Below, piece by piece: positions 36,008 to 44,457 of a stretch of 64,000 nt of DNA; position 1 is the first letter of the stretch, and every line of letters begins with the position of its first letter. The stretch covers positions 62,001-126,000 of the forward strand of contig JACRME010000009.1 in the NCBI GenBank assembly GCA_016235045.1, read 5' to 3'. The position numbers and the translations under genes were made by a program. The notes beneath the pieces are model-generated. The model was given only the letters and a program-made list of their open reading frames with translations, did no database searches and had not been told where the DNA came from. The stretch is from Nitrosomonadales bacterium. Lineage in GTDB: Bacteria > Pseudomonadota > Gammaproteobacteria > Burkholderiales > Gallionellaceae.

Positions 36008-36037
36008 TTGACAACCTGAGTTTGCATTCACAATAAT
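36008..36037 (+). promoter_or_regulatory. candidate sigma70 promoter of the cytochrome-porin locus
   Basis: TTGACA (36008-36013), N18, AATAAT (36032-36037), about 125 bp upstream of the first gene. Confidence 0.5.
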
Positions 36038-36161
36038 CGCCCAACAGTGGAGTGTCGTTCTCGGCCATCGCCCTGAACCGGTTTGGGGTGGACATTGATT
36101 GCAAAATAGGGTTTGACGGGGACAGGGTGCACATCCCCATGAACGAATTATCGAGTTTCAA

Positions 36162-37067
36162 ATGACTGCACAGACATTGCAAAGAAATCTGATTGAAAAG
36201 CGCAGGCCAAGGCTCAGGCATCCGCCCAAGGACTACGGCTGGACGCTGTATTTGATCGTGATCACCTTGCTGATGGCCGCGGGATATTCCGTCTCGCACG
36301 ACGGGTTTTACAAGCCGGGCGACGATGTCGGTTACTACATCGGATTGGCTGGCGGACTCATGATGCTGACGCTGCTGATCTACCCGTTGCGCAAGCGCAT
36401 CGGTTTCATGCGGAATTGGGGGTTGCTGCCGGGATGGTTCAAATGGCATATGGCGTTTGGCATACTGGGGCCCGCGCTGATCATGTTCCACTCCACCTTT
36501 ATGATCGGGTCGGTCAATGCCGGAGTGGCAATGGTTTGCATGCTGCTGGTTTCGGGGAGCGGAATATTCGGGCGCTTCTTCTACACCAAAATTCACAACG
36601 GCCTTTACGGCAGAAATACAACCTACCAACAATTGCAGGAGGAGTTGGAAGGATCGAAAGATGTCAAATCCGTTTTCAGCTTTGCGCCCGGATTGCAGCA
36701 GAAACTGGTCGATTACCGAAACTACGCAATGAATCTTTCCAAGGGCGGAAGAATCAGCGTGTGGAACTTCCTGACCTTGGGATTCCGGATTCAGTGGTTT
36801 ACCAGAGCGCTGATTATCGAGCTGGAAGACGCGATGTACGCGGATGCCAACGAGAAACAATGGAGCGATGTGCAAATGAAGCGGCTGGACGAACTCTTCT
36901 ATCAGAACGCCCAATTTATCCGCACCTACCTTTTAACCGTCCGCGATCTGGCGCAATTTTCAACCTACGAGAAATTGTTTTCGCTATGGCACATCTTTCA
37001 TGTGCCGCTGGTGTACATGCTGGCATTCAGTTCGATTTGGCATGTTATTGCGGTGCACAAATACTAA
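36162..37067 (+). CDS. inner-membrane protein, ferric-reductase-like, candidate di-heme cytochrome b of the porin-cytochrome locus
   Basis: Multiple TM segments; two HX13H motifs: H-MAFGILGPALIMF-H and H-VPLVYMLAFSSIW-H. Confidence 0.75.
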   Translation: MTAQTLQRNLIEKRRPRLRHPPKDYGWTLYLIVITLLMAAGYSVSHDGFYKPGDDVGYYIGLAGGLMMLTLLIYPLRKRIGFMRNWGLLPGWFKWHMAFGILGPALIMFHSTFMIGSVNAGVAMVCMLLVSGSGIFGRFFYTKIHNGLYGRNTTYQQLQEELEGSKDVKSVFSFAPGLQQKLVDYRNYAMNLSKGGRISVWNFLTLGFRIQWFTRALIIELEDAMYADANEKQWSDVQMKRLDELFYQNAQFIRTYLLTVRDLAQFSTYEKLFSLWHIFHVPLVYMLAFSSIWHVIAVHKY

Positions 37068-41771: not shown

Positions 41772-41798
41772 AAGCCGACTTCCGTGAAGTCGGCTTTT
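41772..41798 (+). terminator. terminator-like hairpin between the giant cytochrome and the porin gene
   Basis: AAGCCGACTT ccgtg AAGTCGGCTT followed directly by TT; 10-bp perfect stem. Confidence 0.7.
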
Positions 41799-41823
41799 GC
41801 TGCACAGGACCAGCGTAAACAAA

Positions 41824-44457
41824 ATGGAACATAGAATGCTGCGAAGAACACGGGTGTTTATCGTCGAGCTTATGCTGCTGTGTGCCTTTTCCGGGTATGC
41901 ATCTGCCGAGATCATCGACGATATCACACTGAAGACGGACGGAAACGGCGAAGTCGATGCCGTGGTTAAATTCACCGTTCCAATCCAGTACCTGCGCCAT
42001 TTCCCGCAGCGCAGATCCGCGGACTTCTCAATCTATTTCAACATCCTGGGCAGCGTCCCCCGCAACGAGTGGCAAAATTACGAATCGCACCGGTCGCCGC
42101 CTTCGGATATCGTCCGGGGATTTACGGTAACGACGCGCAACTTGAGTACGGGCCCAAAAATTGATGTTCAATTCAATCGCCCGGCAGAATTCAAAGTCAC
42201 ACCGGGCCCGGACGACCGTACCCTGTTGATCCATATCAAGACGGGCAGCAAGCCGCCAGAACCGGAGAGCAAGCCGATACCATCCTTGCCGTTGCCTGGC
42301 GTCGCGCCGGTCGTGGCTCCGCCCGTTGCCGTGCCGCCAATGCCGGTGACTACCAAAGCGGCTACGCCCCCGCCAGTTCCCCCCGTGACAGCAAAGCCAG
42401 TTCCCGAACCCGCGAAATTGCCCGCTGCAACACCCCCGCCGCCGGTAGCACTAACACCGGAGCCTGAAAAACCCAAGCCGACTCCAACGCCCGCACAGAT
42501 AGCGGCGGCCAAGGCAGTAATTTCCCCGGCATCCAAACCGATGAAACTCGGCGGAAAAGACGGCTTGCCCGTATTCCCCGAACTGGAACAAGTCACCCAG
42601 GGCGCGGTGAGTGCGCAGCCTTCCGAATCCCCCACGCTCGCAGAGCAGACCAAAAGAGCAAATGCCCAAGCGGCGGTAATGATGGCGAAAGGGCGGGATA
42701 GTCTGCTGGGCGGCGAAATGTTTGCCGCAATCGATGCGTTCAACAAGGTGCTGCAGCTTCCGCCCAACAAGTACTCGGCGGACGCGCAATTGTGGATCGG
42801 GATAGCACGCGAAAAAGGCGGCCAGTTGGCCAAGGCCAAGCTGGAATACGAATCCTATTTAAAGCTCTATCCCAACGGGGCAGGGAAGATGTGGGTGTCG
42901 GAACGGCTGGCCAAACTGCAATCCGTTCCCACTCAATCGCCATACGCGGCACAGCCATCGTTGGCCAGGGCGCAGGGCACGGAGATGCAGTTCACGCAAT
43001 ACGGCAATGTCTCCATGTATTACTACTGGGGTAACAGCCAGACCGACACCGTAGCGACGGTAGGCGGGGTTCAAAGCCCGACCAGCTTATCGGTTATCGA
43101 CCAGAAATCGCTGATCGGCAACGTGAACGTAACAGCCCGCGCCTACAACAACGAATTCGACAATCGTTTGGTATTCCAGGGACTGAAGGCGATGAATTTT
43201 TTGCCCGATCAACCGGACAAAAACCGGACCAGCGCTTTTTACTATGAAGTCAAGAACCGGGTTGACGATTATTCGGCGCGTGTTGGTCGCCAGTCCGCGT
43301 TGGGAGGCGGTGTGCTGGGACGATTTGACGGTATCTCGGCGGGATACGGAATTACCTCGAACTGGCGCGCGAATGTTGTGTATGGCCGACTATCCGACGA
43401 TACGGTGGATTCCAAACCGGTGTTCTATGGCGCCAGCCTCGATTTCGGCGTCAGGAACCCGCTGGGAGGCTCGGTCTATGCCATCAGCCAAAAAGCCGAC
43501 GGCCTGACAGACCGCAAGGCGGTGGGAGGTAACCTGAGATATTTCGACCAGGGGAAAAGCGCGATAGCCATGCTGGATTACGATACGCAGTTCAAGGCAC
43601 TGAACATATTCACCGTGCAAGGGACATTGAATGCCGAATCGGATACGGATTACAATTTTCTTGTGGACAGGCGCAGAAGTCCCGTGTTGAGCATCAAGAA
43701 CGCCATTAATGGTTACACCCAGACATGGGCGGTTCAAGTCGTCGATCCTGCCACGGGTCTGCCTCCCATCGATCCTGCCACCGGCCTGCCTTTCCCTCCG
43801 GAGTTCAATTATTTCTCGGCGCCCTCGACCATCGGCGAATTGCGGCAAAATGGATTCACGATGGACGACATACTGGACCTGGCCAATAAACGTACTGCCG
43901 TTACCAACGTGGCGCAAATCGGGGTAAACAAGCGCATCAAGGAAAAATGGCAAGCAGGCGGAGATGTCGTGGTTGCATATACGTCGAGTTTGCCCGAGAG
44001 CGGAACGCAAAACGGCGACGGAACAACCGGGGTGGAAGGTTATGGGCCACCGATGCCTGCAACCGGCAAGGCAGTAACGCTAACCGGGAGAGTCTCCGGG
44101 AGCGACGTCATATTCAGGCGCGATACCACGACATACACCCTGAGTTTCAACAAGAGCTCGTCCGCCAAGGGAGAGACGTTCGTGTTTTACAACCACGCCT
44201 ATTTGAGCGAGTTGCTGGCTTCGCTGAGCGAACGGCTGACGCTGGACACGACATTGACGCAGAACTGGCAAAAAGACAGTTTGGGCGGAAAGACAACCAG
44301 ATATGCGCTCATGTTGAAAACGGGCTATCAGGTGAGAAACAACCTTACGCTGGAAGCGGAGGGGGGCTTTGAGCAATCCAATGTCAAGCCAGCCGCATTG
44401 GAACCATCGAAAATAAAACGGAAATATGTTTCGCTCGGGTTCCGCTGGGATTTCTGA
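41824..44457 (+). CDS. outer-membrane beta-barrel porin of porin-cytochrome complex with N-terminal AMIN-like and TPR regions
   Basis: Signal peptide, AMIN-like IKTG-terminated domain, Pro-rich linker, TPR (AIDAFNKVLQLPPNKYSADAQLWIGIAREKGG), alternating barrel strands ending in VSLGFRWDF; ORF track start 41797 overlaps the hairpin so 41824 preferred. Confidence 0.85.
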   Translation: MEHRMLRRTRVFIVELMLLCAFSGYASAEIIDDITLKTDGNGEVDAVVKFTVPIQYLRHFPQRRSADFSIYFNILGSVPRNEWQNYESHRSPPSDIVRGFTVTTRNLSTGPKIDVQFNRPAEFKVTPGPDDRTLLIHIKTGSKPPEPESKPIPSLPLPGVAPVVAPPVAVPPMPVTTKAATPPPVPPVTAKPVPEPAKLPAATPPPPVALTPEPEKPKPTPTPAQIAAAKAVISPASKPMKLGGKDGLPVFPELEQVTQGAVSAQPSESPTLAEQTKRANAQAAVMMAKGRDSLLGGEMFAAIDAFNKVLQLPPNKYSADAQLWIGIAREKGGQLAKAKLEYESYLKLYPNGAGKMWVSERLAKLQSVPTQSPYAAQPSLARAQGTEMQFTQYGNVSMYYYWGNSQTDTVATVGGVQSPTSLSVIDQKSLIGNVNVTARAYNNEFDNRLVFQGLKAMNFLPDQPDKNRTSAFYYEVKNRVDDYSARVGRQSALGGGVLGRFDGISAGYGITSNWRANVVYGRLSDDTVDSKPVFYGASLDFGVRNPLGGSVYAISQKADGLTDRKAVGGNLRYFDQGKSAIAMLDYDTQFKALNIFTVQGTLNAESDTDYNFLVDRRRSPVLSIKNAINGYTQTWAVQVVDPATGLPPIDPATGLPFPPEFNYFSAPSTIGELRQNGFTMDDILDLANKRTAVTNVAQIGVNKRIKEKWQAGGDVVVAYTSSLPESGTQNGDGTTGVEGYGPPMPATGKAVTLTGRVSGSDVIFRRDTTTYTLSFNKSSSAKGETFVFYNHAYLSELLASLSERLTLDTTLTQNWQKDSLGGKTTRYALMLKTGYQVRNNLTLEAEGGFEQSNVKPAALEPSKIKRKYVSLGFRWDF

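What the first reader, a model, noticed from the sequence alone, without database searches (positions are those of the whole stretch)
36008..44457. Four-gene porin-multiheme-cytochrome locus: complete candidate extracellular electron transfer conduit
The sequence shows four consecutive same-strand genes: an IM protein with two HX13H motifs, a 21-CxxCH cytochrome, a 974-aa cytochrome with 35 candidate heme sites, and a beta-barrel porin ending in F. Established knowledge: porin-cytochrome complexes (MtrCAB, Geobacter Pcc, and PCC3 described in Gallionellaceae-type iron oxidizers) carry electrons across the outer membrane. Inference: this is a PCC3-type conduit totalling about 56 c-type hemes plus a candidate IM b-type module, used for Fe(II), mineral or electrode oxidation. 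The cluster type has precedent; its biochemistry is little characterised as far as I know.
Basis: partly seen in the sequence, partly recalled or inferred. Interest (0 to 1): 0.9.

Follow-up and report, generated by a model that had tools for sequence, protein, structure and literature searches.

The report
PCC3 cytochrome conduit with missing partner
These four genes encode a known but biochemically untested type of protein wire (PCC3) thought to carry electrons between an iron-oxidizer's inner membrane and the outside world; the new point is that every genome sampled with this wire also has one iron-sulfur flavoprotein gene, absent from the published descriptions I could read, which suggests the wire connects to the cell's NAD(P)H pool rather than only to its quinones.

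Summary
36162-44457 holds four same-strand genes: a 5-helix inner-membrane protein (IMP) with two WX3HX13H motifs, a 21-heme cytochrome, a 35-heme cytochrome (33 CxxCH + 2 CX4CH) and a large beta-barrel protein. They meet every sequence-testable defining feature of PCC3 (He et al. 2017). The same order occurs in about a dozen related loci, so the locus itself is a new member of a known kind.

(1) "Used for Fe(II)/mineral oxidation" is not established. In the best-studied relative, Sideroxydans ES-1, both PCC3 clusters go down on Fe(II) and are not clearly induced on magnetite. (2) A membrane-anchored ferredoxin/FAD/NAD(P) oxidoreductase ("FeS-FAD") tracks PCC3 one-to-one: 17 of 300 genomes in the order and 6 of 399 in the phylum have PCC3, and exactly the same genomes have FeS-FAD, usually beside the IMP. 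The window's locus lacks it, but a second PCC3 locus in this genome (contig C12) has it. I found no mention of it in the PCC3 papers held. It suggests a ferric-reductase/NADPH-oxidase-like inner module tied to NAD(P)H, whose favourable direction is outward. The pairing is inferred, not shown.

The parts
36008..36037 (+). sigma70-like promoter candidate (TTGACA-N18-AATAAT) upstream of the cluster
   Evidence: 11 of 12 consensus matches, best site of the region; consensus match only
36162..37067 (+). IMP: conserved inner-membrane protein, 301 aa, 5 TM, two WX3HX13H (W92/H96/H110; W276/H280/H294) and SGXXG (S133); putative diheme cytochrome b
   Evidence: the Trp and His of both motifs are invariant in all 41 aligned homologues; no Pfam or PDB match
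37068..38660 (+). MHCp: 530-aa cytochrome, 21 CxxCH in about 67-aa triheme repeats, N-terminal signal-like helix; periplasmic by family
   Evidence: Cytochrome_C7 etc.; 204-bp tandem repeat
38819..41743 (+). MHCe: 974-aa cytochrome, 33 CxxCH + 2 CX4CH, about 52-aa diheme repeats with one free His per heme; extracellular by family
   Evidence: its first diheme module resembles an MHCp repeat (46% over 39 aa)
41771..41797 (+). 12-bp hairpin with T-run (stem ends in TTT, next base T) between MHCe and porin genes (terminator/attenuator-like)
   Evidence: -18 kcal/mol, z -4.9; strong hairpins at the same junction in L004, L008 and L111
41824..44457 (+). Porin: signal peptide, predicted all-beta domain (about 31-140), Pro-rich linker, TPR (about 272-367), outer-membrane beta barrel (389-876)
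   Evidence: the ORF as called mechanically opens at TTG 41797

Best explanation
The locus encodes a PCC3 trans-envelope electron conduit. The porin holds multiheme cytochrome in the outer membrane, the 35-heme MHCe reaches outside, the 21-heme MHCp bridges the periplasm, and the IMP carries electrons across the inner membrane on two b hemes. The inner end most likely docks not only with quinone but with a membrane-anchored ferredoxin-FAD-NAD(P) oxidoreductase, supplied here in trans from the second PCC3 locus of the same genome (G000:C12:248955-250247). This would make the inner module work like a ferric reductase/NADPH oxidase (NAD(P)H -> FAD -> Fe-S -> heme b -> heme b -> multiheme wire), so the thermodynamically easy direction is outward. 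Shown: gene content, motifs, a predicted barrel, conserved gene order, one-to-one co-occurrence and linkage of the flavoprotein. Inferred: cellular localisation, heme loading, physical pairing of IMP and flavoprotein, direction, substrate. The conduit part alone I hold at about 0.85; the pairing at about 0.5; outward direction at about 0.4.
For: PCC3 identity: the sequence-testable He et al. features are met. Flavoprotein link: in 300 genomes of the order the IMP is present (E<=1e-44) in 17 and FeS-FAD (E<=1e-60) in exactly the same 17; in 399 genomes of the phylum, 6 and the same 6; 5 of 5 genomes of L003-L007 have one. It adjoins the IMP in 16 of the 17 order genomes and follows the porin in the other. 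Paralogue pattern: window-type IMPs without an adjacent FeS-FAD (window, L003, L004, L006, L007) occur in genomes that also hold a clade-II IMP with it; members of both clades in other genomes carry it themselves. FeS-FAD has an N-terminal TM, six invariant Fe-S Cys plus an invariant His, and FAD/NAD(P)-binding regions nearest YpdA/Bdr and thioredoxin-reductase-like ferredoxin-NADP reductases. The IMP has a loop of about 125 residues after TM4 that hydropathy and the positive-inside rule place in the cytoplasm. ES-1 PCC3 is lower on Fe(II) than on thiosulfate.
Against: No structure or biochemistry ties FeS-FAD to the IMP. The AlphaFold model of the IMP was too poor to use (pLDDT 66, no Foldseek match at E<=0.001). 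Cytochrome c maturation (ccm-like, by inspection) genes sit beside FeS-FAD or PCC3 in some loci (L054, L056, L108, L109), so a role in cytochrome maturation is possible. In Sideroxydans CL21 one PCC3 IMP gene rises in Fe-oxidizing cells. Direction of flow is thermodynamic inference.
Confidence: 0.55

Rival explanations
1. He et al.'s model: PCC3 takes electrons inward from Fe(II), minerals or a cathode and the IMP passes them to the quinone pool; FeS-FAD is accessory.
For: The host has the gene set of an autotrophic iron oxidizer: RuBisCO, a Cyc2-like fused cytochrome-porin (L020:4514-5731), MtoA/MtoB plus an MtrC-like gene. PCC3 is frequent in Gallionellaceae FeOB (PMC10734462). HX13H pairs are shared with quinone-active cytochromes b (PMC5566968).
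Against: ES-1: both PCC3 clusters down on Fe(II); the extracellular cytochrome of the second cluster was not detected in any listed proteome and PCC3 was not clearly induced on magnetite. The model leaves the strict FeS-FAD association unexplained.
Confidence: 0.3
2. FeS-FAD belongs to cytochrome maturation or redox poise of the c-type hemes rather than to the electron path; PCC3 needs it only to be built.
For: ccm-like genes adjoin PCC3 or FeS-FAD in L054, L056, L108, L109 (identified by inspection, no family search); PCC3 needs dozens of hemes attached.
Against: The other 283 of 300 genomes of the order lack FeS-FAD at this score, and many of them presumably still make c-type cytochromes (not tested); FeS-FAD is linked to the IMP more closely and more often than to ccm genes.
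Confidence: 0.15
3. PCC3 is mainly an electron store (capacitor) or an envelope redox element, with no sustained extracellular transfer.
For: Very high heme counts; the capacitor idea is raised in PMC10734462.
Against: A conserved barrel protein and a conserved IMP in the same cluster point to a through-membrane path.
Confidence: 0.07

Closest known systems
PCC3 of Sideroxydans lithotrophicus ES-1, Leptothrix and others (He et al. 2017, PMC5566968)
   Same: Gene set IMP, periplasmic MHC, extracellular MHC, porin; heme counts at the published medians (21 and 34; here 21 and 35); WX3HX13H and SGXXG motifs
   Different: The published description in the texts read has four components; here a fifth (FeS-FAD) is found with every PCC3 sampled, and the window locus is a paralogue that lacks its own copy
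MtrCAB / MtoAB / PioAB
   Same: Porin plus periplasmic and (MtrC) extracellular multiheme cytochromes; likely the same conduit principle
   Different: No match to the MtrB/PioB porin family: this genome's only TIGR03509 hit is elsewhere (C32); far more hemes; a putative diheme-b IMP in place of CymA/ImoA; porin carries a large N-terminal TPR-bearing region
PCC4 and other HX13H-IMP multiheme clusters (He et al. 2017)
   Same: IMP with two HX13H motifs; some carry a separate Fe-S or other redox protein (compare L060)
   Different: PCC4 has no extracellular MHC and its IMP lacks overall homology; the L060 flavoprotein is a distinct cNMP-binding/Pyr_redox/Fer4 fusion
Ferric reductase transmembrane domain / NADPH oxidase (NOX)
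   Same: Two HX13H pairs placing two b hemes across the membrane, with a flavin and NAD(P)H partner: works-like resemblance
   Different: No sequence match found (Pfam, PDB); the partner is a separate thioredoxin-reductase-like ferredoxin-FAD protein, not the NOX-type FNR domain

Membership tests
PCC3 porin-cytochrome cluster | Four clustered genes: IMP, periplasmic MHC, extracellular MHC, porin | tested here: met
PCC3 porin-cytochrome cluster | IMP of about 300 aa, 5 TM helices, two WX3HX13H and one SGXXG motif | tested here: met
   Trp and His of both motifs invariant in 41 homologues
PCC3 porin-cytochrome cluster | MHCs with very many hemes, low residue-to-heme ratio and repeats | tested here: met
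   21 and 35 hemes, 24 and 27 residues per heme, tandem repeats
PCC3 porin-cytochrome cluster | Porin is an outer-membrane beta barrel with many strands | tested here: met
   AlphaFold pLDDT 80, about 24-25 strands; Foldseek to OM barrels; strand count approximate, prediction only
PCC3 porin-cytochrome cluster | One MHC periplasmic, the other outside | not testable with these tools
   Signal-like N-termini on both; sidedness needs fractionation
MtrCAB/MtoAB/PioAB | MtrB/PioB-family porin (TIGR03509) | tested here: not met
   No NCBIfam MtrB match for the window porin; the genome's TIGR03509 hit is on C32
MtrCAB/MtoAB/PioAB | DmsE-family decaheme MtrA/MtoA | tested here: not met
   Window MHCs score far below the TIGR03508 cut-off (15.9 and 87.1 against 192.2 bits)
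Ferric reductase / NOX transmembrane domain (PF01794) | Sequence match to the family | tested here: not met
   No Pfam match to the IMP; the works-like claim rests on the HX13H pairs only
Ferric reductase / NOX transmembrane domain (PF01794) | Two b hemes bound by the four His | not testable with these tools
   Structure model unusable

The most novel reading that the evidence does not exclude
PCC3 is really a five-component system: a ferredoxin-FAD-NAD(P) oxidoreductase feeds (or drains) a diheme-b inner-membrane protein joined to a wire of dozens of c-type hemes, linking the cytoplasmic NAD(P)H pool directly to the outside of the cell without needing quinone, probably running outward. In two-copy Gallionellaceae such as this genome, both PCC3 conduits share one flavoprotein.
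Probability: 0.4. Interest if true: 0.75.

Novelty: new member of a known kind. Interest (0 to 1): 0.45.

Why it matters
PCC3 is common in iron oxidizers and has been a candidate iron oxidase since 2017; its function is described as untested in the papers read, while the expression data do not fit that role well. A fifth component that tracks it one-to-one gives a concrete, testable reason: the conduit may exchange electrons with NAD(P)H and may export rather than import them. It also gives a compact gene to delete or purify, and a marker to add to genome surveys.

Tried and rejected
IMP structure: AlphaFold with 41 sequences gave pLDDT 66 and Foldseek no match at E<=0.001, so no fold claim is made. 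Sequence search of the IMP, MHCp and MHCe against the PDB: nothing significant. The exact Cyc2 DNA pattern found nothing; with mismatches allowed it found a Cyc2-like gene. An early idea that FeS-FAD is unlinked from PCC3 in G345 was dropped: both halves of that PCC3 locus lie at contig ends, and FeS-FAD follows the porin. G643 remains undecided (different contigs). Weak IMP matches (E about 1e-12: G022, G136, G174; E 1e-12 to 6e-9: G453, G485, G497) were not counted as PCC3; of these, G022, G136 and G174 were inspected and are decaheme clusters. Supplementary tables of the PCC3 papers and paywalled or preprint papers could not be read, so 'not described' means not in the main texts of the PCC3 papers held.
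Full report
What is there. Four same-strand genes fill 36162-44457: IMP (301 aa), MHCp (530 aa, 21 CxxCH), MHCe (974 aa, 33 CxxCH + 2 CX4CH) and a barrel protein (likely start ATG 41824, 877 aa). In MHCe nearly every interval between consecutive heme motifs holds exactly one free histidine (36 free His for 35 hemes), and MHCp has 23 for 21; this is the pattern expected of bis-His hemes, and shuffled proteins give 0.3 CxxCH on average. 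MHCp is built of about 67-residue triheme repeats and MHCe of about 52-residue diheme repeats. The first diheme module of MHCe matches MHCp repeats (46% over 39 residues), so I infer that its N-terminal end continues the MHCp-type wire.

The barrel protein. AlphaFold (43-sequence alignment) gives pLDDT 80, with about 24-25 strands over residues 389-876. The top 50 Foldseek matches are all outer-membrane barrels. Before the barrel lie a predicted all-beta domain, a proline-rich linker and a TPR region (BamD/YbgF-like scores). MtrB-family models do not match.

The inner-membrane protein. Hydropathy gives five helices. The Trp and His of WX3HX13H on helices 3 and 5 are invariant in all 41 aligned homologues, and both motifs plus SGXXG are present in all 29 IMPs taken from loci. 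These are the PCC3 IMP motifs of He et al. (PMC5566968), who proposed two b hemes. The structure model was too weak to test the fold.

Family membership. The gene set, motifs and heme numbers (published medians 34 and 21) match PCC3. The order IMP-MHCp-MHCe-porin recurs in about a dozen related loci with intact contigs, across several families of the order; others are cut by contig ends. MHCe varies from about 11 to 62 hemes among them.

The host. The window is contig C33 of a 3.15-Mb genome. It has RuBisCO, a Cyc2-like gene, MtoA/MtoB with an MtrC-like gene and a second PCC3 locus on C12 with two shorter extracellular cytochromes. Closest named IMP relatives are Gallionellaceae/Sideroxyarcus-type genomes. 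This is an iron-oxidizer gene set by homology.

A fifth component. Next to the IMP of the C12 locus, on the opposite strand, is a 431-aa protein (FeS-FAD): an N-terminal TM helix, two Fe-S motifs and a thioredoxin-reductase-like FAD/NAD(P) region (Pyr_redox_3 E 6e-41, Fer4). The six Fe-S cysteines and one histidine (H91, where a second-cluster cysteine would be) are invariant; position 61, where another cluster cysteine would be, is Ala/Ser. Closest solved structures are YpdA/Bdr and ferredoxin-NADP reductases of the thioredoxin-reductase type. The same gene lies beside or within PCC3 loci throughout the order.

Co-occurrence test. In 300 genomes of the order the PCC3 IMP (E<=1e-44) is in 17, and FeS-FAD (E<=1e-60) is in exactly those 17, one copy each. 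In 399 genomes of the phylum the strong IMP is in 6 and the strong FeS-FAD (E<=1e-170) in the same 6; three of these are shared with the order sample. Two further phylum genomes have only weaker, longer flavoprotein relatives (E 1e-50 to 1e-61), and three have only weak IMP matches. The five genomes of L003-L007 all have one strong copy. That is 25 of 25 PCC3 genomes, with no strong copy among the rest. The chance of identical sets in the order sample, ignoring relatedness, is about 4e-28; relatedness makes the true figure larger, but single genera contain both states with the two genes changing together (g2: G251 has both; G115, G190 and G281 have neither).

Where the window fits. An IMP tree splits the Gallionellaceae proteins into two clades. 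The window lies with L003 and L004, and less firmly with L006 and L007, among IMPs that lack an adjacent FeS-FAD. Their genomes carry a second, clade-II IMP with FeS-FAD beside it (in G303 the second IMP reads as fragments). Other clade-I members (L005, L044) and single-copy clade-II genomes (G024, G071, G154) carry FeS-FAD themselves. The simplest reading is that each genome keeps one flavoprotein, shared in trans when there are two conduits; copy number of the IMP in the L005 genome was not tested.

Mechanism. Inference: the predicted cytoplasmic loop of the IMP (residues 141-265) is a possible docking site; FeS-FAD would pass electrons between NAD(P)H and the inner b heme, then the outer b heme, MHCp, porin/MHCe and the outside. 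NAD(P)H is a low-potential donor and the membrane potential favours electrons leaving, so outward flow is the easy direction. This would fit ES-1, where both PCC3 clusters fall on Fe(II) (PMC8788666) and are not clearly induced on magnetite (PMC12016527). CL21 data are mixed (PMC12442390). The inward, quinone-linked model remains open.

Known or not. I searched the main text of the six PCC3 papers held (PMC5566968, PMC10734462, PMC8788666, PMC12016527, PMC12442390, PMC13386937) for flavoprotein, FAD, pyridine-nucleotide and, in most, ferredoxin terms and found no description of this component with PCC3. He et al. do mention Fe-S or other redox genes beside PCC4 and other HX13H clusters. Supplements and unheld papers could not be checked.

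Verdict. Observation confirmed; PCC3 identity supported; 'complete' and 'for Fe(II)/mineral oxidation' not supported as stated. The locus is a new member of a known kind; the flavoprotein association is the part worth follow-up.

Noticed in passing
41771-41797: Strong 12-bp hairpin with a short T-run between MHCe and porin genes; hairpins of different sequence occupy the same junction in L004, L008 and L111, suggesting conserved attenuation or mRNA processing that sets the porin:cytochrome ratio.
   Followed up: partly
L008:6877-14567 (G000:C12): Second PCC3 locus of the same genome: IMP2, 21-heme MHCp2, two short extracellular cytochromes (about 13 and 16 heme sites) and a 723-aa porin.
   Followed up: yes
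L004:19147-20354: A second MHCp-like cytochrome (68% identical to the window MHCp, cut by the locus end) follows the porin in a Sideroxyarcus MAG.
   Followed up: no
L050:8233-12735; L052:7357-12378; L053:7334-12397; L054:7673-12736: Extracellular PCC3 cytochromes with 59 to 62 CxxCH sites in single ORFs of about 1500-1690 aa.
   Followed up: no
L060:567-14980: Different cluster: IMP-like protein (24% identity), decaheme cytochrome, and an 812-aa cNMP-binding + Pyr_redox + Fer4 protein; HX13H proteins seem to recur with flavin/Fe-S partners.
   Followed up: partly
L019:4100-9769 (G000:C32): MtrC-like multiheme gene beside MtoA (10 hemes) and MtoB in the same genome.
   Followed up: partly
41824-42980 (porin residues about 31-367): PCC3 porins carry a large N-terminal region (all-beta domain, Pro-rich linker, TPR) before the barrel; TPR scores resemble BamD/YbgF. 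Possible envelope anchor or cytochrome clamp.
   Followed up: partly
L091:318-1400 (G303): The FeS-FAD-linked IMP reads as two fragments with a break; could be sequencing error in the MAG or a decayed gene.
   Followed up: no
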